DNA from: Verrucomicrobiales bacterium
Lineage (GTDB): Bacteria; Verrucomicrobiota; Verrucomicrobiia; Verrucomicrobiales; DEV007
Direction of reading: 5' to 3'
Length of the DNA stretch: 64,000 nt
Assembly: GCA_028047635.1 (NCBI GenBank)
Contig: JAOFXR010000012.1
Span: forward strand, 1 to 64,000
Shown here: positions 5,632-63,999 of the stretch, piece after piece
Layout of the letters: every line of letters starts with the position of its first letter
How positions within the stretch are numbered: the first letter of the stretch is position 1
The notes under the pieces: generated by a model
Told to the model about the DNA's origin: nothing
The model's database searches: none
What the model saw: only the letters and a program-made list of their open reading frames with translations
Program-made: the position numbers and the translations under genes

Positions 5632-6735
5632 ATGTCCTACATCCGTCACATTGAAACACTCGTGCCAGAAGTCAGTTACCCGCAGACTCTCGCCGGCGAG
5701 GTTTTGAGTGAGCGCTCGGCAAGCGATAAAACCAAGCGCTATATCAAGAAGGTGTATGCCGCTTCGGGAATTGAGAAACGGCACAGTATTGTAACCGACT
5801 TTTTACCCGGTTGTGAAACCGGTCTTTTCGTCGAGTCGGACGGAAGCGTGAAAGAGCCCACCACCGGTGAACGAAATGCCGCTTACGTAGCGGCCGCGAA
5901 GGAAATGGTTCCTGAAATTGCCCGCCGGACGATGGATCATTGCCCGGGCATTTCGTCGTGGGACATTACTCATGTAATTACGGTTTCCTGCACGGGATTC
6001 TTCAATCCGGGCCCGGATCTTTTGGTGATCGATGCGCTTGATCTCTCTCCTAAAGTGGAGCGGTATCATCTTGGGTTTATGGGCTGTTATGCCGCTTTTC
6101 CGGCCTTGAAAATGGCTTCTCAGTTCTGCGCGCTCGATGAATCGGCAACTGTTCTCATCGTCTGCCTTGAACTTTGCTCGATTCACTTGCAGAACAAAGA
6201 TGATCTCGATAGCATTGTCGCCAACTCGGTCTTTGCTGATGGAGCCGCCGCGGCGGTCGTTTCCTCCCGGCCACCTGAAGCAGGCGAGCGAGGGTTTTCG
6301 ATTGAGCATTTTGGGTGCAATCTTGCACGGGAGGGAATCGACGATATGGCCTGGGATATTGGAGATCACGGGTTCAACATTGTTCTTTCCAAATATGTCG
6401 CTCGAATTATCGGGGCAGGAATCAAAGGGTTAATGGACGAAGTGTTATCAGGTTCCGATCTGAGTCCTGATGATATCGTCCACTGGGCAGTTCACCCCGG
6501 CGGAAGGGCAATTGTTGATAAGGTAGAGTCCGGACTCGAACTGCAAGCTGACCAAGTGCGGGCCTCGCGCGAGACGCTTTCGTCCTTCGGCAATATGAGT
6601 AGCGCGACGATTCTTTTCGTTCTTTTAGCGATCATGAATGACGAGAAAACGAATGACGGGGATTCTGTCTGTGCGATGGCCTTCGGGCCTGGTTTGACGA
6701 TTGAGACCTCAATTTTGAATGCGGTGGTTAGTTAA
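5632..6735 (+). CDS. Type III polyketide synthase (chalcone/stilbene synthase-like)
   Basis: 367 aa; apparent catalytic Cys in LGFMGCYAAF, His in WAVHPGG, Asn in FGNMSSATILF; terminal FGPGLTIE (GFGPG-like loop). Confidence 0.9.
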   Translation: MSYIRHIETLVPEVSYPQTLAGEVLSERSASDKTKRYIKKVYAASGIEKRHSIVTDFLPGCETGLFVESDGSVKEPTTGERNAAYVAAAKEMVPEIARRTMDHCPGISSWDITHVITVSCTGFFNPGPDLLVIDALDLSPKVERYHLGFMGCYAAFPALKMASQFCALDESATVLIVCLELCSIHLQNKDDLDSIVANSVFADGAAAAVVSSRPPEAGERGFSIEHFGCNLAREGIDDMAWDIGDHGFNIVLSKYVARIIGAGIKGLMDEVLSGSDLSPDDIVHWAVHPGGRAIVDKVESGLELQADQVRASRETLSSFGNMSSATILFVLLAIMNDEKTNDGDSVCAMAFGPGLTIETSILNAVVS

Positions 6736-8548: not shown

Positions 8549-8679
8549 AATATACTCCTGGAAGTGGCGGCGAGCACTAGCGAGTGGATTGCGCAAGGCT
8601 CCGGCGGCTAGGCTCTGTGGTCCACTCGCTGCCACCCTTAGCCCCCTTTTTAACTAAATTTTACCGAAGCAATTTTCTT

Positions 8680-11600
8680 ATGATAAAATACCTTTTCTCC
8701 CTCTTCCTCCTCGGGAGCACCTACAGCGTCAGTGCAGAGATCCCCTTGGCGACGGGGCCTTTCCGTGGCGTTGAAGTGAAGGTGGTCGCTGACGGTGTCA
8801 AAGAACTCACTATTAATGAGCCTTCTGCCCATTTCTGGTCTGGGCCTGTTCCATCGACTTACAAGCCGGGGACTGAAACGGTTCTCTCGTTTGAATACTT
8901 CTCGCCTTCGGGTTTGAAATCGCTCTCGCTCAAGTATCGTCAGCGTGACGGAAGTATGACCCAGTCGGATGCCAAAGAACTGCCGTTGGCAGAAAGCTGG
9001 CAGCCGTTTTCGTTAGATCTTACCCAGGGAAGCCCCGCGCCTCCCGAAGGAGATCCCAAGATGCGTTTTCACTTTGCGTTAAAGGGAAATATAGGTGATG
9101 CCCTGCAAATCCGGAATCTCAAATTGCGAGTGCCTACCGAAGAGGAGATCCGGTTGGCGGCGACAAGGGCAGAGCGCGAACGGGCCAAGGATGCGGACGC
9201 GGGGGCTTACCTTGAATATCTGCGAGACTGGTATCCTAACATAATCACTTCCGTCGTAGTGAGTGCTGATCGAATTCATATCGCAGGAGAGGCGACTGAA
9301 AGTGTTTCGCTCGTGGAATTGCAAACCCACGAAGCCTCGCATCTTCCCGTCTCGACAGCACCTCTCGCCTCAGAGTTAAAGGGGGCATTTCAACTCTCGT
9401 TGGCGCGGTTTTCGCGTGAGGGAAAAGTAGATCGTGCGCTCGCGCGCTGGCGGTTGGACCGTCCCAATGGAAAGCCGGCGTCGTTGTGCCGCTGGGCGGA
9501 TTCCCTCGAAGAAGGAATTGCCCGTGATCTTCCAAAACTGGAATCGACGCATCAGAAGGGGCTCGGTGGAATACCTGATATTCGTGATCCCAAACATGAG
9601 ATTTTTGAGCTTGGGATTCAACATGCAACGATCAATGTCGTCATCGATGCCTTGATTTCCGAGACGAAGCGCGCCGGGATGACTCCTTATCAGTTCGAGG
9701 GGAAGACTTATTTCATCAATCCCAAGTTTCTCGCTGGGAAAATTTCGACCTTGAAGCACTTCAGTGACAATGATGTCATCGTGACGTGTATTCTTCTCGT
9801 GGGGAATCGTGCTGGATCTCTTCTTACACATCCGGAAACCGAAACGCGAGGAACCTTTGCGATGCCTAATTTGGCAACTGAAGACGGTGGTCGACTCTAT
9901 CGCGCTGCGATCCATTTTCTGGCGGATAAATTTTCAAAACCAGACCATCGCGTCAGTAACTGGGTGATTCACAATGAAATCGACCAGGCGGGGACTTGGA
10001 CGAATATGGGCGATCAACCGCTTGCTCGCTATTTGGAAACCTATGTGAGATCGATGCGAACGGTCTACCATTCGACTCGTCTCTTCGATCCTAATGCGCG
10101 CACTTTTGTTTCGCTGACGCATCATTGGGCGAAGCCCAGTTTAGGCAAAGGTGCCTACACGGTGAAGGAAATGGTCGAACTCTTCACTGAAATGGCGAAA
10201 GCGGAGGGAGACTTTGAATGGGGGGTTGCATACCATCCTTATCCTCGCGGTCTTCGGGATCCAGACACTTGGGATGATGAAGATGTGACTTTTGATTTTG
10301 ATACGCCTTACATCACCCCGAAAAATATGGAAGTGCTTCCCGCTTTCCTTGCTCAGGATCGCTTTCTTTTTCAAGGTGACCATGAACGGGCGATTCTTTT
10401 TTCCGAACAGGGATTCAATTCTCCGACGCTCAGTGAAGAGGATCAAAAGCGGCAGGCGGCAGGTTTGATTTACGCTTTCCGTAAACTCCCAAAACTCAAA
10501 ACGATTGAGGCGTATCATCTCCATCGTTATCAGGATATGCCTACTAACGAAGGCGGGCTTCGTCTCGGGATTATTGATGAGAACGGGAATCGGAAGTTGG
10601 GCTGGGAAGTTTATAAAGCGATAGGAACTGATAAAGAGTCGAACTATGACGCGCTGGCAGAAACCTATTTCGGCAGTGACGCGACGGTAGTGAATGACAT
10701 GCCCGGTGCGGAACGGCCGAACATTGTTTACCTCGTCGCGGATGATTTGGGTTGGTCAGACACGACTCCCTATCTCGATCCAAGTGAGGATTTCTACGAG
10801 ACACCGAACATTGCTGAGCTAGCAAGGCGGGGGATGAAATTTACGAATGCTTATGCGGCGAGCCCACTATGTTCGCCTACCCGGGCAAGCATCCTGACAG
10901 GACAATATCCCGGGCGGATTCGTCTCACGACGCCTGCTTGTCATATTCCCGCTGTTGTTCTGAATCCCACTGTCGGAGCGAAGGCTAAAGCAACTCTTCC
11001 CGCGGTCGAGCCCGGGACGAGAACACGTTTTCCCAATTTTTACGAGACAATCCCCGAGCGACTCAAGCAAGTGGGTTACCGGTCTGCTTTCGTAGGGAAG
11101 TGGCACTTAGGTCGTGCTCCCTACTTTCCCGATCAGCAGGGTTTTGACCTCGTCATCGGCGGCCGGGAGCATCCAGGTCCTCCCGGCGGGTTTTTCGCCC
11201 CGTGGCCCATCGATACAATTCCCGATTCTCCAGAAGGTTCTCATATCGATGATGTCATCACGACGGAGTCAATTAAGTGGGTGAAGGAAAAAGCGAAGGC
11301 GGGTGAGCCGTTTTTCCTCAACCTTTGGTATTACTCAGTGCATGCCCCTTTCGAGGCGAAGCCGGAGTTGATTGAAAAATACGCGGAAAAAGCCAGGGGG
11401 CTCCCGGCGTTGGCACCGCGCAAGAATCCGGTCATGGCTGCGATGATTGAAACGCTTGACGATAACGTGGGTCGTATTATGAGGACGCTCGACGACTTGG
11501 GTCTGAGTAAGGACACCTTGGTTGTTTTCACTTCTGACAATGGGGGAAACGAATACAATTTTGCGGCTAACGAATTGGCGACCAATAATTACCCGCTCCG

Positions 11601-12507
11601 AAATGGGAAGGGTAATATTAACGAGGGTGGCCAGCGTGTTCCCTTCATTGCCGCATGGCCCGACAAGATCGAAGCGGCTAGTGTGAACCCTGGATTGATC
11701 AGTTCGATTGATCTTTTCCCGACTGCTCTTGCGGCAGCCGATGCACCGATTGCCCCCGCACAGGTCGTCGACGGAATCAATATTCTCCCCATTCTTTTCG
11801 GTGAGAAAGAAGTCGATGAGCAGCGTGCTTTGTTCTGTCACTTTCCTCATGGCCCGCCTGCAACAGGAACCGTGGCGGGGACTTCGGTGAGACGTGGCCC
11901 TTGGAAACTCACTCGATTTTTTGCGGGCGGAAAAGATCAGGCAGATCGTCTCAAGCTGGTCAATCTGGATGACGACCCGGGGGAGATGATTGATCTTTCG
12001 AAAGGGAAACCGAATCATGTAGTAGAATTGAATGAGAGGATTTCCGAGCATCTCAAAGTGACTGAATCACTGGTTCCGATCCCGAATCCTGTGTATGTGC
12101 CGACGGCATATGGTTGGGCAGGCAACAAGGATGCTCCTTTGGATTTGATCGATGATTTTCTTCTCGTTAATTCTACAGGAAATGATCCACACATTCGCAC
12201 GACTGATTTTTCGAATGCGACCGGTAAAATTACGATCGAAATCAGAATGAAGCAGGAAAACACATCCGACGTGGCGCTCTACTGGGGAACCAAAAAGGAA
12301 CCTGGATTCAGTTCGGAGCGGCTTATGGTCGTTCCCCGGACCGCCTTCGGAGTTTGGCGGGCTGATCTGGATATTGGGGAAGAGCGTCTTGCCCTGATCC
12401 GCATTGACCCAGCGCAGACGACCGGGCAGGTCAGGATTGATTCGATTCGCCTCATGCAGTGGACGAAGCCCGGCGAGGCCAAGACGGTTCGGCTTTGGGA
12501 CTTCTGA
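8680..12507 (+). CDS. DUF5722 (GH-A-like barrel)-sulfatase fusion protein, secreted
   Basis: Signal peptide [19 protein letters not shown]. The DUF5722-type region includes [62 protein letters not shown] and [10 protein letters not shown]. The sulfatase region includes [32 protein letters not shown] and FTSDNGG. A beta-sandwich-like tail follows. Confidence 0.85.
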   Translation: [1275 protein letters not shown]

Positions 12508-52799: not shown

Positions 52800-53675
52800 T
52801 TACCCTTTGCTCTCTTCCTCGAAAAGCTCGAATGCTTCCTGAGGCTTGAGGTTGTCATGAACCACGCCGGCAACGGCTTTGATCATTGCGAGAGGGAACT
52901 CGGACTGGAAAACGTTACGTCCCATGTCGACTCCGGCAGCTCCGCACTGAATCGCGTTGTAGGCGAGTTCGAGCGCTTCGAGCTCAGGAAGCTTCTTACC
53001 ACCGGCGATGACAACAGGAACAGGTGTGCAAGCGACAACGTTCTCGAATCCTTCCGTGTAATAAGTCTTAACGATGCTGGCACCGTTCTCAGCACAGACA
53101 CGTGAAGCGAGGCTGAAGTAGCGTGAGTCGCGAGCCATATCTTTACCAACTGCGGTAACTCCCATGACAGGAATGCTGTACTTGTTTCCGATGTCAACGA
53201 GACGGCTGAAGTTGGCGATTGTGGTCGCCTCAGTAGCGGCGTCTCCGACAGAAATCATTGCTGCCATCGCTGCAGGGTTGAGGCTGATCGCCTCTTCCTC
53301 GGCAAGAAGAACGTTGTGGTTCATCTCGGTGAGGATCGTTGTGCCGGTATCAGTACGAAGACAGATTGGCTTGGTGTTCTCGGGAGAGATGCTGGAACGA
53401 ATCGAACCGCGGCAACCCATGAGACAGTCAGCGTGCTCAGCAAGAGGATCAATATTGATGTCGATACGCTCAAGACCTGAGGTTGGCCCCATGAGGAAAC
53501 CGTGGTCAAAAGCAAGCATCACCGTACGACCGGACTTGCGGTTGAAAATGCGAGCCATGCGGTTCTTGATTCCCCAGTCGGTGTTGTTGAGACCCTTGAG
53601 GTAGAATTTGCTGGTATCAGCAGGTGTGTTGAGTCCGAAGTTGTCTCCGTCTCTGATGTCGTCTAAATCAGCCAT
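52800..53675 (-). CDS. lsrF: LsrF-like class I aldolase/thiolase (DeoC/FbaB family)
   Basis: MADLDDIRDGDNF; LKGLNNTDWGIKNRMARIFNRKSGRTVMLAFDHGFLMGPTSGLERIDINI; VGKDMARDSRYFSLASRV; IVKTYYTEGFENVVA; VVIAGGKKLPE; GAAGVDMGRNVFQSE. Closely similar to remembered E. coli LsrF along its length. Confidence 0.8.
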   Translation of the reverse strand: MADLDDIRDGDNFGLNTPADTSKFYLKGLNNTDWGIKNRMARIFNRKSGRTVMLAFDHGFLMGPTSGLERIDINIDPLAEHADCLMGCRGSIRSSISPENTKPICLRTDTGTTILTEMNHNVLLAEEEAISLNPAAMAAMISVGDAATEATTIANFSRLVDIGNKYSIPVMGVTAVGKDMARDSRYFSLASRVCAENGASIVKTYYTEGFENVVACTPVPVVIAGGKKLPELEALELAYNAIQCGAAGVDMGRNVFQSEFPLAMIKAVAGVVHDNLKPQEAFELFEEESKG

Positions 53676-56379: not shown

Positions 56380-59300
56380 CTAGTTGATCAACGAGGGAAT
56401 CTTTTCCGTGTTCTCTATCTCACCTCGAAGAAGTTTTCCTCCGGCGCCAACGAGCCTCAAGTAATAGTCGGATGCCAGTCCTTCCATTCCGAGTAAGCTC
56501 ACCCCTTCACTCGCGGGCACATCATTCGTGCATTTGAAAATAGCAGTCCCTTCGTCCACTTCATCAAACATCGCGACGTAGATCATTTCGCACTTGGCCT
56601 TTTTTGCGGCTGAGAATTGTGACCATAGAAACTTTCCTTTCTCTCTCGGAATCGAAGCAAGATCATCGCCGTCGAGGTTGTGCCAACTGAACCCCGGGAA
56701 AGTTACCGGCAGAAAATCGATCTCATGTTCGTTGCACCATTTTAAATCAGCACGCCAGTTCTCTTCCGCTTCGCGATTGACCTGCTCAATGGCGCGATAC
56801 CGTCCGACATTCCAGGGGCTCAAGACATCGGCGAGTGCCATGACATCGAGTCGCTCTGGATCTTTGATTGAATCTCGGCCGCCTTCTCTCCACCAGTAGG
56901 GAATTCCTAACATAACCGCGCAACCTTCTGCTTTGAGGAACTCAATCAGCTCGCGGCATTCCTGAAGGGTGTAGTCGCGATCGTCATTGAATCCAACGCC
57001 CCAGACCGCCACCAGTGGTTTCCCTTCGTGGTGAAGGTATGTGGCATCTTCGGTGACGTTCAATGCTTTGAGGCTTTGCCAGTCCTCGTTCACCACAGCC
57101 GTCTCGCCCTTTTTAAGTCCCGAAAGATCATACATGAGAGCAAAGGCTCGGCCGGTCTCTTTTGCTCCGTTGCGAACGTGTGAGAGAACCGCGTCTTTGT
57201 GAGAGCGTGTCTTATCTCCATTCAGGCCGTTGGCAAAACGCTGCAGAAAAGCCCCGTCGATCCCATACTCCTGCATCCACTTGAAATGGCGCTTCACCGT
57301 CTTCTCATTATGTGAGCTGAAAATTTGAGCGGTTGAGCCATCGCTACGTTTGAAAGCGGTCGGAAAAAGTTCATCGGAGTGGTATTCAGAGACATCAGGC
57401 CAAAGATCGACCGTGACATTTCCGGGCCCCGGCATTTCCTTTCGGTTCTTTGCCCAATGCGTCCATCCGAGCTCGGCACCATCACCTTCACAATTGAACC
57501 ATCCCTGGTAGCCACACATGATTTTTCCCGTGAGGGTGGACGCATCAACGTGGTGGGTGCTTCCGGCTTTGTATGATTCTCTGTGGTCAGCCGCTTCTGA
57601 TCTCTTTTCCTCCAGTGCGGCTCGAAATTCCTCGAGCCGATCAGATTGATTCTCTTTATTGGCGAGATTGTTTTTCTCCTCAGGGTCTTGCGTGAGGTTA
57701 TAAAGCTCTTCTCCATCGGGCCAGAGCGCGTAGCGCCAGCGTTGATTGCGGAGTGCGTATCCCAGTTTCTGTCCGCGGCTGACCACACTGTAAGCATATT
57801 TTTTTTTGCCACTTCGTTCGGGATTGTTGAGAAGAGGAACAAGTGAAGTGCCCTGGAGATGGCCGGGTTTCTTGAGGCCGCTCAGATCAGCAAGTGAGGG
57901 ATAGATATCAATCAGCTCAACCATGGCTTCCGAAGTGGTGCCTGCCTTCGTGATACCCGGAGCGTTCACGATGAAGGGGACTTTGGCTCCGATGTCGAAG
58001 AGGGTCACTTTCCCCCAGAGGAAGTGATCCCCGAGATGATAGCCGTGGTCAGAGGTGAAAATTACAACGGTATCTTCTGCGAGACCCTCTTCTTTAAGCG
58101 TCTCGAGAACGACTCCGATTTGAGCATCGATAAAGGAAATGCAAGCATGATAGGCCTGCATGTATTCCCGTCGTAACGAGTCCTTTTCGACTCCCAGTTC
58201 AAAGCCGAATTCTTTGAAACGACCTGAGATCGCCATTTTGGGAAGGCTATCCCAAAGCGTTGGGCGATCGGGCGAATAGACAAGGCTCTCTCTCGGATAT
58301 TGATCAAAATACTTATCAGGAGCAAGAAAGGGGACGTGCGGTTTCTGAATCCCACAGGCAATGAAAAATGGTTTGTCGCCATTCGGTTTTTCGCGTAGCC
58401 AGGTGGCTACCTGATGGGCGTTTTTGCCGTCTTTGTGCTGCGCATCAGTAAGTCCGCTCGGCCCGTATCCGGGAGGTGTCTGCGCGTCGAGTTTGCTCTT
58501 AGCCTGTTTCTCGAGGGCCTTCCAGGCTTTGCGGTTTTTGCCTTCTTCGACCGATCCGCTTTCGGCTTCAAATTTCTTTCGGGCTTCGGTGACGACGGGG
58601 AGCTCATCATTTTCGAAACGATGAAACTCATCCCAGGCGACTTCTCCATGTTCGTGTCGGGGTGAGTGAAATACTTTTCCGACGCTGCCGGTCCAGTAGC
58701 CGCTTTCTTTAAAAAACTGAGGCATCGATACGGTTCCCGGACGGGTCGTGCGAATGTCCGCCTTGTTATCGATGACCCCGGATGATTCGGGATAGAGACC
58801 GTTGAGAAAGGAAGCGCGTGAAGGCCCGCAAACGGGATACTGGCAGAAGGCTCGATTGAAGGTCATCGATTCCTTTGCAAAGGCTGCGAGGTTAGGCGTG
58901 CTGATAGGGTCGTAACCCGAAGGGGAGACGTGGGTATTGAGGTCGTCACAGACGATGAAGAGGATATTCTTACCGCTGGCTGGGGAAGTAGATGCATGTT
59001 CTACTTCCTCCTTTTCGGATGTGTCGATCAGACTGACTTCGTCTACATAAAAACCACCACTGAAATCCTGACCGGGGAAGAATCGCAGGGTGACGTCCTC
59101 ATGCTCCCCGCTGTTAAATTGACGCGTGAACGATAGCCACTCGCCGGATTTTTTTGCATCCATGACTACTTGTGCGGTTTCGTCGAAACGGTCGAGAGTA
59201 TCGAATACGACATTTCCTTTGGATCCGGGTTGGAAGTAAATGTGATAAGAGACTTCGAACGGGTGGTTTGATGGAATAGCGATGTTCTGTCGGGCGGCGA

Positions 59301-61026
59301 CACCTCGCTCAATTCCTTTTCCTGATTGAAGAGAGTGCGCGCCGTCTGTTTTTTTTGCCGGGGAGATTTTGAAGGAGTCTTTCGCATATTTCCAGGGAGA
59401 CTTCATCTTTCCCGTGAATTCGAAGGAGCTGTCAACTACGAGATTTTTCGACGAGTTACCTCTGTAGGTTGCCTTTGGCTTTTCGGTGGTCGACTGAGGA
59501 ACATAGCCCGATTTGGGATTGGCATTTCCCGCTCCCTTTTCCCAGCGAAACGTGTTCTCCTCAATGACGAGGTCTTTGCGGGAATTTAACTTCTCTTCGT
59601 GGGGGGCGAAGGTAGCAGGAGCAAGTTGCTGCATCTTCTGCTTGAGATCAGAGTAGTCGGGGACTTCTGCCAGATTGGTCCATTCGTTAGGATCATTCTT
59701 AAGGTCGTAGAGCTCTTCTCCATCTTCGCCGTAGCGGATATAGCGCCAGTCGCGGTTAATGATCGCGTATTCGCCTGGCTCCATGTAGGGGAGGAAAATA
59801 TCACGATCGGCAGCGGAGGAAGGATCGTTGAGTGTTTTGGCGATAGAGGTCCCTTCGAGCTTCTGTGCTGGCGGTGGTAAGTCGCACATTTCCGCGAGTG
59901 TTGGATACATATCGATGAGGCTGACCGTCACATCGGTCTTCGCTCCTTCCGCTACTCCAGGGCCCGCCCAGATGAAGGGGATATTTGAGGTCCGCTCCCA
60001 AAGCGTGTGCTTACCCCAGTCTCCTTTTTCCCCGTGGTGATAACCGTGATCGCTCCAGAGAACGACGATGGTGTTGTCAAAGTAGGGGCTTGCTTCGAGT
60101 GCATCGAGGACGCGGCCCATCATCGCATCGGCATAGCTGATACAAGCGAGATAGCCGTGGATGGCATCGTCGACCGCATCGAGTTTTTCGAGGCCTCGAT
60201 GGTGCTGATTGCGCCGGGCAATTTTCTTTTTACGCATCTTCTCCGGCAAGTCATCGAGGTCGTCTTCGTTGTAAGGAGGGAGGGTAATCTTCTTTGGTTG
60301 GTAGAGATCAAAATATTTCTGAGGGCAGTAGTTCGGGAAGTGCGGTGCGTAGATTCCACAGGCAAGAAAGAAGGGCTTGTCGTGATCCTTCTTTAATTGG
60401 TCGACGGCCCAGTTAATTCGCATCGTGTCAGCCATCTCTTCTTCTTTCCCCTCGGGGATGGCGCCCCATTCGAGAAAGAGCCCGCCGGTAACTTTCTTGC
60501 CTTGGTTGTAAATACTGGCGGGGAACTCACTTGGGAATGGCGTCTCTTCGCTCCACGAGTCGAGCGGCCAGCCGTTTTCTCTCTGTCGTTTCGTGCGAAG
60601 GAAAAATTCCGTCCAATCGCGTTGATCGATGGCTCCGGTCGGATGGTGAAAAAGCTTTCCGGCTCCGAGGGTGGTGTAGCCTCCTTTGGAAAAGCTGGTT
60701 TGCAGTGCCTCAGTCCCGGGACGATTGACGAAGTAATGCGCCGAGGTGTAGCAACCGGTCGTTGAGGCAAACTGTCCCGAAAAGATGGCGGCGCGGGAAG
60801 GAGCACAGAAAACGCCTGCGGTATGTGCATTGGTGAAGTTCACACCACGGGCAGCGAGTTTATCGATGTTAGGAGTGATTGCGCGAGGTCGAACGAGAGG
60901 TGCCGTGTCCTCAAGACAACCAATCCAGTCGTTCATGTCGTCGACTGCGAGGAAGAGGACGTTGGGCTTTGTCTCTGCGTGTGCAATACCGATCGAGAGA
61001 AGGGCAAGGGTTAGAAAGAGTTTCAT
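56380..61026 (-). CDS. Multidomain secreted enzyme: sulfatase - beta-sandwich-like linker - sulfatase - GH71/99-like
   Basis: Signal peptide [17 protein letters not shown]. Sulfatase 1 has [11 protein letters not shown] and [21 protein letters not shown]. The linker runs [10 protein letters not shown]...VDEVSLID. Sulfatase 2 has [25 protein letters not shown] and [12 protein letters not shown]. The C-terminal domain has [24 protein letters not shown]...[11 protein letters not shown]...[12 protein letters not shown]...[16 protein letters not shown]...[14 protein letters not shown]. Confidence 0.88.
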
Positions 61027-61045: not shown

Positions 61046-62608
61046 CTATTGAGTAAATTCAGCAAAAGGGCGTTCTTTGAATTGCTTGAGCATTTCGGAA
61101 AGGTCTCCTTTGAGCTCCGTGGTTAGATCGTGAAACTCGCCGTAAAGATTTTCGTTTTCCCGCGGGTCGGTGCGCATGTCAAAAAGCTGGTCGGTGGCAA
61201 AGTAGTGGGGATTGACCTTCGCTGCGTAGTGCCCGAGGTGACCGTTCCTTGTCAGGTAGGGGCGTTCGAGGATTTCTCCCTGGAAGCCATTGAAGGTTTT
61301 CCCGGCGGCGATTTTCTTTTGGACCTCGGTAGGGTAGCGAACTGCGATATATTTCCACTCCTTTGTTTTGATGCAACGGGAGTGCCCGAGTTCACCAAAG
61401 ATGGCTTTGCGTATCGGTTCTTTACTGCCGAAAAGGACGGGCTTAAAACTGAGTCCGTCCATCGCGTAATCATCGGGAGGAGTGACGCCGCAGATGTCGA
61501 GCAGAGTGGGGGCGAGATCGATATTGGCTAGTAATCCGTCGTAGCGAGTGTGCCGCTTGATCGTGCCCTTCCATTGCATGAGCATGGGGATCCGCATCCC
61601 GTAGTCGTAGAGAGTGGCCTTGCCGTGGCGGAAGGATCCATGGTCTGGAACGAAGATGATGAGGGTTTCCTCATCGAGTCCAAGGGCGGCAACTTTGTCG
61701 AGAATCGCTCCGACGCCATCATCGAGCCAGAGCGCATAGGCTGCTTTGTCAGGAAGTCCCGCTTCGCGATTGCGGCGGAGGACGTCGGCGCGGGGAGGGA
61801 GGACATTGAAACCTTCTTCAACATATCCCTCGCCGGTCATGTTCGGATCGGCCTCGAGCGAAAATTTGTTCGCCCAGGGCGCGGGTCCGTGATGAAGCGT
61901 CGTTGAAAAGTAGAGAAAGAACGGATCACCCTGGCTCTCCTCGAGGAAGTTGATCGCTTTGTCGACCGTCCAGTCGAGATTGTGAACATTGAGCGCGTCG
62001 CATTTGAGTTCCTTCAAGTTGGCGCCATAGACGCCGTCAGCAAAGTCGAATCCGTAGCGCTTGATTTCATCACACCATTTCTGGTGGTTTCGTTGCATCT
62101 TGGCATTGACCTCCGGGTCCCGTGGGTCGGCATCCTGGGGATACGTTTCCATGGCGGCACTCTTCGTGGGGCCGTGCTCAGTAAGCCAGTCGTGACGAAT
62201 CACGTGGGACTTCCCGACGAAGCCGGTTTTGTATCCGTTCTTCTGCAGCACTTTGGGGAAGTTCCAGAGATCCGGTTCGAGTTCGCCGATGTTCTCGACC
62301 TGAGTCTGGTCACCCGGAGGATGTTCTTTCATGAACTTTTCACCCCGGCAGCGCCCGGCATAGCGTCCTGTCAGGAAACTGTAGCGCGATGGCGAGCAGA
62401 CGGTCGAAGTGACGTTGAAGTCAGTGAGAAAAAGTCCTTCTCTCGCCATCTGATCGATTCGTGGAGTGAGGACTTTCCCATCCATAAAGCGCAGCGAGTC
62501 CCAGCTTTGGTCATCTGTGATAATGAGGATGACGTTTGGCTTTTTCTTCGTCTCCGCGTTAACGAATGAAACAGCGAAAAGAAGGAATAACGGCAAAAGG
62601 GTTTTCAT
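61046..62608 (-). CDS. Sulfatase, secreted
   Basis: [81 protein letters not shown]. Confidence 0.93.
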
Positions 62609-62685
62609 AGAGATCGAACGAAACACTGCTATGGCGATAGGGAATAAGGCCTCGAAAGGGCACTGTGTGACTTTTGAAGAAGGGG

Positions 62686-63999
62686 TTATTTGGCAGATTT
62701 GTTTCTTTCCGCCTTTTTCTGCGCCTTCCTTTTTGCCCGCTCCGCTTCTTTATCCTTGTCTGATTTCTTGTTTTTTCTCGTCGGCATGGAGGCACTCCAG
62801 ACTTTTGGCTGGCCACTCAGGGGTTCTGCCATTTCTTCAATCCAATTATCGAATGCTGATTTGAGCTCAGCGACGATTTTGGGGTTTTCGGCTGCAAGGT
62901 CGGTCGTTTCCCCGACATCAGATTCGAGATCGTATAGCCAACTCTCTCCTTTCACTCCGGTAAGTTTCCATTGGTCTGACCGGACGGCCCAGGTTCCCTT
63001 CTGGCCTCCCGAGCTCCAAAAGAGATGATCATGCAGCTTCCCGGTTTCACCTGTTAGCGCTGGAAGCATGTTCTTTCCGTCGAGGGGGCGATCTGAGGGG
63101 GAAGGAATCTCGGCTGCAGCGAGAATGGTTGGTAAAATGTCAGTCGACCAAACGGGGACGTCGCAGGTAGTGCCGCCTTTCAACCGGGCGGGCCATGACA
63201 CAATAAACGGAACGCGGATGCCGCCTTCGAAGTCTTCCTGTTTGTAGCCACGCAAAGGCGCATTGTTGGCGCTCATTGCTTTGGAGCCTCCGTTGTCAGA
63301 AAGGTAAATTAGGAGCGTGTTCTCAAAAAGGCCTTCTTCCTTTAGTTTACCGACGACGTCTCGAACACCGAGATCGAGGTGTTTCAGCATACCTAGAAGC
63401 GTGTTGCGCGTGGGATCGTCGGTTGCAGGTTTGATGTCTTCCTCCGGAGCTTCCGCTGGTGAATGGACTGCGTTGTAAGCGAGGTAGAGAAAGAAAGGTT
63501 TCTCTTTCTGTCTATCGATAAAGTCGACGGCCTCTTCGGTGAGTCGGGTCGTGAGGTAGCCTTTTTCTTTAATCGGAGTAAGACCGCGCATAATGGGGTG
63601 TTCCGGATCGCTGTGATCAAAATAGGGGTGAGCACCGCGGCCCATGAATCCGTAGAACTCATCGAAGCCGCGATTGACGGCGTTGTACTCCGGCGTCAGT
63701 CCAAGGTGCCATTTGCCAATCGCTCCACTGACATATCCGGATTCTTTTAAAAAAGTAGGGATCCAGACCTCCTCAAGCGGCATTCCTGAGCCTCCTTCAC
63801 CGGCAGTGTAGACGCCGAAACGTTGTTGATAGCGTCCCGTCATGAGGCCTGCCCGAGTCGGGGAGCAAACGTGTCCGCTGGCATAACCATTCGTACAGAT
63901 AACACTCTCAGCAGCAAGCGAGTCGAGGTGCGGTGTCCTGACCTCCGACGGTGATTCCGAGTTGTAGCTTGTGTCAGCGTAGCCTTGATCGTCAGAGAC
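62686..63999 (-). CDS. Sulfatase, 5' end beyond window edge
   Basis: Frame stays open to the window edge (VSDDQGYADTSYNSESPSEVRTPHLDSLAAESVICTNGYASGHVCSPTRAGLMTGRYQQRFG...); GKWHLG; LSDNGGSKAMSANNAPLRGYKQEDFEGGIRVPFIVSWP. Confidence 0.9.
   Translation of the reverse strand, partial: VSDDQGYADTSYNSESPSEVRTPHLDSLAAESVICTNGYASGHVCSPTRAGLMTGRYQQRFGVYTAGEGGSGMPLEEVWIPTFLKESGYVSGAIGKWHLGLTPEYNAVNRGFDEFYGFMGRGAHPYFDHSDPEHPIMRGLTPIKEKGYLTTRLTEEAVDFIDRQKEKPFFLYLAYNAVHSPAEAPEEDIKPATDDPTRNTLLGMLKHLDLGVRDVVGKLKEEGLFENTLLIYLSDNGGSKAMSANNAPLRGYKQEDFEGGIRVPFIVSWPARLKGGTTCDVPVWSTDILPTILAAAEIPSPSDRPLDGKNMLPALTGETGKLHDHLFWSSGGQKGTWAVRSDQWKLTGVKGESWLYDLESDVGETTDLAAENPKIVAELKSAFDNWIEEMAEPLSGQPKVWSASMPTRKNKKSDKDKEAERAKRKAQKKAERNKSAK

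What the first reader, a model, noticed from the sequence alone, without database searches (positions are those of the whole stretch)
56380..61026. Trifunctional polyenzyme: two sulfatases and a GH71/99-like domain in one secreted polypeptide
A single uninterrupted ORF carries two complete sulfatase domains with different active-site motifs (CAPSR and CGPSR), a beta-sandwich-like segment between them, and a C-terminal GH71/99-like domain starting near [12 protein letters not shown]. Known sulfatases are normally single-domain. The fusion suggests stepwise desulfation and cleavage of one sulfated glycan, possibly as a processive unit.
Basis: partly seen in the sequence, partly recalled or inferred. 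Interest (0 to 1): 0.72.

Follow-up and report, generated by a model that had tools for sequence, protein, structure and literature searches.

The report
Two-sulfatase, sugar-binding, GH99-like fusion enzyme
A bacterium of a sulfated-glycan-degrading group (Verrucomicrobiales) carries one secreted protein that joins two sulfate-removing enzymes, a sugar-binding module and a chain-cutting enzyme; relatives make the same parts as neighbouring genes or in other fused combinations, so the parts very probably attack one and the same sulfated glycan.

Summary
One 1548-aa ORF (56380-61026, minus strand) encodes a signal peptide, sulfatase S1 (CAPSR), a CBM16/CBM4-like beta-sandwich, sulfatase S2 (CGPSR) and a C-terminal GH99-fold domain. 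Catalytic and metal residues are intact in both sulfatases, and both GH99 catalytic glutamates are present. Both sulfatases are nearest PDB 6HHM.

Multi-domain sulfatases are already known, and a sulfatase plus GH99-related tandem enzyme has been characterised (PbSulf1-GH195, PMC13063451). Nothing here shows processivity.

New here: S1-CBM-S2 is a conserved protein of the genus (about 70-73% identity) that ends in a stop and often lies beside a separate GH99-like gene. Only this genome, of 34 in the genus, 75 in the family and 289 sampled in the order, fuses them. The joint is clean: stop lost, 10-residue linker, GH signal peptide gone. A planctomycete has an independent 1403-aa sulfatase-GH99-like-S2 protein, and sulfatase-GH99-like fusions probably arose several times.

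Verdict: probably a real fusion, a new variant of a known kind, most likely desulfating and then cutting a sulfated alpha-glycan of unknown identity. Read-level proof against misassembly is lacking.

The parts
56380..61026 (-). whole ORF, 1548 aa, S1-CBM-S2-GH99-like polyenzyme
60976..61026 (-). signal-peptide-like N-terminus (aa 1-17, [17 protein letters not shown])
   Evidence: read from sequence; no signal-peptide predictor was available
59527..60972 (-). sulfatase S1 (aa 19-500)
   Evidence: PF00884 8.3e-42; nearest PDB 6HHM 6e-53
60793..60807 (-). formylglycine motif CAPSR (aa 74-78)
59023..59445 (-). carbohydrate-binding module, CBM16/CBM4-like beta-sandwich (aa 528-668)
   Evidence: CBM_4_9 in 6 of 7 homologues; fold match to CBM16 2zew 1.3e-07
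57577..58980 (-). sulfatase S2 (aa 683-1150)
   Evidence: PF00884 4.6e-46; nearest PDB 6HHM 1.2e-64
58816..58830 (-). formylglycine motif CGPSR (aa 733-737)
57550..57579 (-). fusion joint: linker [10 protein letters not shown] (aa 1150-1159) where relatives have a stop codon
56383..57549 (-). GH99-like catalytic domain (aa 1160-1548)
   Evidence: PF16317 34.7 bits; fold
56545..56565 (-). GH99 catalytic motif DEVDEGT (aa 1488-1494; E1489, E1492)
61046..62626 (-). sulfatase Y, same strand, directly upstream (probable operon)
   Evidence: 73-78% identical sulfatase next to S1-CBM-S2 in G068 and G090
62686..63999 (-). sulfatase X, same strand, runs off the window; its relatives are fused to S2, S1 or GH elsewhere

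Best explanation
This is a genuine secreted four-module polyenzyme, made by fusing a conserved two-sulfatase protein (S1-CBM-S2) to a GH99-like hydrolase, with all modules acting on one sulfated glycan. Inferred mechanism: the CBM holds the chain; S1 and S2, once their cysteines are matured to formylglycine, remove sulfate at two different positions; the exposed alpha-linked residues are then cut, probably internally, by the GH99-like domain through E1489/E1492; neighbouring sulfatases X and Y and other enzymes finish the products. Shown by sequence: module order, intact catalytic residues, conserved co-localisation, repeated fusion of the same parts. Inferred: enzyme activity, order of steps, endo mode, substrate. 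A sulfated alpha-mannan-like glycan is the best single guess, weakly held.
For: Intact active sites in all three catalytic domains. Non-synonymous change far below synonymous change in all modules (pN 0.13-0.34 against pS 0.73-0.84, synonymous sites near saturation). S1-CBM-S2 conserved in five other species of the genus. GH99-like gene adjacent to S1/S2 in many relatives; by my count 18 of 28 order genomes holding both have them within about 10 kb. Independent X-GH-S2 fusion in L109 and sulfatase-GH fusions in L101, L176, L178, L179; six label changes on the GH tree, four forced by supported branches. FGE-family genes present. Precedent: PbSulf1-GH195, where desulfation must precede cleavage (PMC13063451).
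Against: No activity data. The exact fusion occurs in one 63%-complete, 193-contig assembly only. No GH92 or GH29 found in the genome, although it is incomplete. GH identity to characterised GH99 is only about 15%.
Confidence: 0.68

Rival explanations
1. Assembly chimera: the contig joins the S1-CBM-S2 gene of one strain or locus to a GH99-like gene from another, so the single polypeptide does not exist.
For: Fusion seen in one MAG only. The GH part groups with G113 while the sulfatase part groups with G108, G090 and G068, and the GH beside S1-CBM-S2 in those relatives is of another subclade.
Against: The joint is in frame, loses exactly the stop and the GH signal peptide, and carries a new 10-residue linker; no homology is apparent between the two gene ends that would mislead an assembler. 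GC content does not jump at the joint. The same oxidoreductase type precedes the GH in G113 and the sulfatases in G090, which suggests one ancestral locus. Independent fusions of the same parts exist elsewhere, one in a named strain.
Confidence: 0.15
2. A real fusion, but incidental: adjacent genes joined by deletion, and the domains work as they did when separate, with no gain from linkage and perhaps on different parts of a degradation route.
For: The fusion is confined to one species. Fusion by joining of adjacent sulfatase genes is thought common in such genomes (PMC4807772). Parts function as separate genes in relatives.
Against: Repeated independent fusion of the same small set of parts in two phyla suggests some advantage or at least shared substrate.
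Confidence: 0.3
3. The substrate is not an alpha-mannan but another sulfated glycan, such as an ulvan-, glycosaminoglycan- or fucan-like one, and the GH99-like domain has a new specificity.
For: Both sulfatases are nearest 6HHM and then, for S2, iduronate-2-sulfatase. No GH92 in the genome. GH identity to GH99 is only about 15%.
Against: GH99 and the related GH195 are alpha-mannan or alpha-mannoside endo-enzymes where tested (PMC13063451). The CBM is nearest CBM16, which has a mannopentaose complex (3OEB). No GH29 found.
Confidence: 0.5

Closest known systems
PbSulf1-GH195 of Polaribacter sp. Hel1_33_78 (PMC13063451)
   Same: Secreted fusion of an S1-family sulfatase and a GH99-related endo-hydrolase; the same two functions are separate genes in a relative (Ochrovirga pacifica), as here.
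   Different: One sulfatase, of subfamily S1_51; T9SS secretion; Bacteroidota. Here two sulfatases of another type, a CBM, and a different GH99-like clade.
Two-sulfatase-domain proteins of Porphyra-associated planctomycetes (PMC4807772)
   Same: Two sulfatases in one chain, attributed to fusion of adjacent genes; the 3' half resembles iduronate-2-sulfatase/choline sulfatase.
   Different: 5' half is arylsulfatase-A-like; no GH99-like domain reported.
P36 of Formosa agariphila, GH78 plus S1_25 (PMC8511951)
   Same: Sulfatase and glycoside hydrolase in one chain acting in consecutive steps on one algal glycan.
   Different: Different GH and sulfatase families; one sulfatase.
Sulfatase-GH fusions of Kiritimatiellales strains F1 and F21: S1_7 with GH10 or GH32, S1_15 with GH29 (PMC6388578)
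   Same: Sulfatase fused to GH in related bacteria; S1_7 among the partners.
   Different: Other GH families, one sulfatase, no activity shown.
L109, 1403-aa protein of a Mariniblastus MAG (found here)
   Same: Three catalytic domains in one chain: sulfatase X, GH99-like (58%), S2 (70% to window S2).
   Different: Order X-GH-S2, different first sulfatase, no CBM seen; separate origin.

Membership tests
Type I (formylglycine) sulfatase, family S1 | C-x-P-S-R motif, metal ligands and Lys/His catalytic set | tested here: met
   S1: D29, D30, C74, R78, K124, H127, H229, D326, H327, K339. S2: D694, D695, C733, R737, K784, H787, H897, D993, H994, K1006 (alignments)
Sulfatase subfamily S1_7 | closest characterised relative in S1_7 | tested here: inconclusive
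   Best PDB match of both halves is 6HHM, then for S2 iduronate-2-sulfatase. That 6HHM is S1_7 is from memory; SulfAtlas profiles were not available
GH99 | GH99 fold | tested here: met
   First 36 PDB fold matches are GH99, best E 9.7e-16, TM 0.64-0.68 by query length
GH99 | catalytic Glu pair E-x-x-E | tested here: met
   DEVDEGT against NEWHEGT of B. thetaiotaomicron GH99; invariant in 22 homologues
GH99 | sequence within the family | tested here: inconclusive
   PF16317 34.7 bits, just over cut-off, only the C-terminal third matched; about 15% identity to GH99 structures
GH195 | sequence similarity to PbSulf1-GH195 or OpGH195 | not testable with these tools
   No GH195 sequence or profile was at hand
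CBM16/CBM4/22 (CBM_4_9) | beta-sandwich CBM fold and profile | tested here: met
   Fold match to CBM16 1.3e-07; CBM_4_9 in 6 of 7 homologues. Window copy alone has no Pfam hit; binding is untested
PbSulf1-GH195-type tandem enzyme | S1_51 sulfatase domain | tested here: not met
   9FVT (OpSulf1, S1_51) scores 8.4e-20 against 6.4e-63 for 6HHM in the same search; so it may work like that enzyme but is not that enzyme

The most novel reading that the evidence does not exclude
The GH99-like clade is a separate hydrolase family of PVC bacteria which, with sulfatases S1, S2 and X, forms a fixed enzyme set for one still unidentified sulfated alpha-glycan; the fused protein is a true one-chain assembly line that hands each desulfated stretch directly to the hydrolase.
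Probability: 0.18. Interest if true: 0.7.

Novelty: new variant of a known kind. Interest (0 to 1): 0.45.

Why it matters
Verrucomicrobiota and Planctomycetota carry up to hundreds of sulfatases whose substrates are mostly unknown. Repeated fusion and co-localisation of the same few parts (X, S1, S2, GH99-like), in different orders and phyla, says which of these enzymes belong together. It gives a small ready-made set to assay on candidate sulfated glycans, and a natural test of whether linking sulfatases to a chain-cutting enzyme speeds degradation.

Tried and rejected
GH71 assignment: the first 36 fold matches are GH99; the GH71 alpha-1,3-glucanase 8YFH is far weaker (4.3e-08). Identity with the S1_51 sulfatase of PbSulf1: rejected. 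Descent of the fused GH from the GH gene that adjoins S1-CBM-S2 in G108, G128 and G068: rejected, different subclade. Substrate from accessory enzymes: no GH92, no GH29, uninformative at 63% completeness. PDB sequence search with the CBM profile gave chance-level hits only, resolved by fold search. No SulfAtlas or CAZy profiles were available, and no GH195 sequence.

Full report
OBSERVATION. The minus-strand ORF 56380-61026 is open over 1548 codons with an ATG start and a signal-peptide-like N-terminus. Pfam places PF00884 twice (aa 21-380 and 686-1050), each followed by SGSH_C, and a C-terminal PF16317 GH99 match that is just above the cut-off when the domain is scanned alone (34.7 against 33 bits) and just below it in the whole protein (30.0). 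The middle segment has no Pfam hit in the window copy, but six of seven homologues match CBM_4_9. Its model (pLDDT 84) is a nine-strand sandwich matching CBM16 first, then CBM4/22.

CATALYTIC STATE. Both sulfatases keep the formylglycine motif, the metal ligands and the Lys/His set. S1: D29, D30, C74, R78, K124, H127, H229, D326, H327, K339. S2: D694, D695, C733, R737, K784, H787, H897, D993, H994, K1006 (alignments; residue roles from established sulfatase knowledge). Both match 6HHM best. I know 6HHM as an S1_7 ulvan sulfatase; that label is from memory, the PDB name here is 'Arylsulfatase'. In the GH domain, DEVDEGT aligns with NEWHEGT of the B. thetaiotaomicron GH99 enzyme; both catalytic Glu are kept and invariant in 22 homologues. 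The predicted structure (pLDDT 91, pTM 0.91) matches GH99 structures in the first 36 places. FGE-family domains are encoded in the genome (13 matches). Non-synonymous change is far below synonymous change in all four modules, with synonymous sites near saturation.

GENOME. The assembly is 3.18 Mb in 193 contigs, 63% complete, with 131 matches to the sulfatase family.

RELATIVES. Five species of the genus hold S1-CBM-S2 at about 70-73% identity; it ends with a stop where window aa 1149 lies. In G108 a GH99-like gene begins 11 nt after that stop, and in G128 one follows directly as well. The GH domain occurs in 133 of 289 sampled order genomes, nearly always as a stand-alone gene of about 410-570 codons. 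The window's fusion is absent from the other 33 genus genomes, the rest of 75 family genomes, and the other sampled order genomes.

THE JOINT. Relatives end '..AA..R stop'. The window reads on through [10 protein letters not shown] into [18 protein letters not shown], which is the start of the mature part of G113's separate GH protein, just after its signal peptide. The GH domain groups with G113 (72%, 100% support) and not with the neighbour GH of G108, G128 and G068 (about 50%). The GH side of the window is syntenic with G113 (aldolase 99%, sulfatase 73%, GH 72%), the other side with G090 and G068 (upstream sulfatase 78% and 73%). The same type of oxidoreductase gene lies just before the GH in G113 and before the sulfatases in G090. 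The simplest account is one ancestral locus with all parts, followed by loss or fusion in different species. A chimeric contig remains possible because reads cannot be seen here.

RECURRENCE. Other arrangements of the same parts: X-S2 (G119, G087, G076, L161), S1-S2 without the CBM (G230, L174), X-S1 (G489), and X-GH-S2 in one 1403-aa ORF of a Mariniblastus MAG (L109: X 54%, GH 58%, S2 70%). X is related to the window's own upstream sulfatase 62686-63999. Other sulfatases are fused to the GH in Bythopirellula polymerisocia Pla144 (874 aa), in G363 and G446 (on contigs of 7.5 and 8.4 Mb) and in G326. On a tree of 45 GH domains the six fused ones need six label changes, four of them forced by supported branches; losses cannot be told from gains with certainty. 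By my own count from the tables, 18 of 28 order genomes with both gene types have them within about 10 kb (G108, G128, G068, G230, G235, G119, G087, G076, G054, G275, G254, G135, G167, G248, G220, G110, G255, G175); for genomes of about 5 Mb chance would give less than one.

FUNCTION. Best reading: binding by the CBM, removal of two kinds of sulfate by S1 and S2, then cleavage by the GH99-like domain. Activity, order and endo mode are inferred. The strongest analogue is PbSulf1-GH195, in which the sulfatase must act before the GH99-related domain cuts sulfated alpha-1,3-mannan (PMC13063451). The substrate here is open: GH99 kinship and CBM16 likeness favour an alpha-mannan; the sulfatases resemble 6HHM and iduronate-2-sulfatase; no GH92 or GH29 was found. 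Processivity has no evidence for or against it.

NOVELTY. Two-sulfatase proteins (PMC4807772), sulfatase-GH fusions (PMC6388578, PMC8511951) and a sulfatase plus GH99-related tandem enzyme (PMC13063451) are published. The four-module S1-CBM-S2-GH99-like architecture, and the recurrent shuffling of one set of parts, were not met in the papers searched; the library lacks most subscription journals. Hence a new variant of a known kind, of moderate interest.

Noticed in passing
window 8584-12507 (+): Second multi-domain sulfatase in the window: 1307 aa with DUF5722 (PF18989, 364.6 bits) followed by a complete sulfatase domain.
   Followed up: partly
whole genome G000: 131 sulfatase-family matches in a 3.18-Mb, 63%-complete assembly, including other long multi-domain sulfatase frames (for example C161:66149-69091, two sulfatase domains in a 1125-aa frame).
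   Followed up: no
window 5632-6735 (+): Type III polyketide synthase (chalcone/stilbene synthase-like) gene among the sulfatase genes.
   Followed up: no
window 52800-53675 (-): DeoC/LacD-family aldolase 99.3% identical at protein level to that of another species (G113) whose flanking genes are only 72-81% identical: strong constraint or recent exchange.
   Followed up: no
L126 (5788-9606), L180 (2436-6143), L181 (2392-6414): In Rhodopirellula-type genomes the GH99-like domain is N-terminal to about 800 residues without similarity to the modules studied here.
   Followed up: no
L104 (7267-11259), L187 (2692-6669), L188 (2331-5519), L189 (6947-10231): A second, distant subgroup of the GH99-like domain (29-33% identity) sits inside 1000-1300-aa proteins, in L189 right next to X-S2 and S1 genes.
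   Followed up: no
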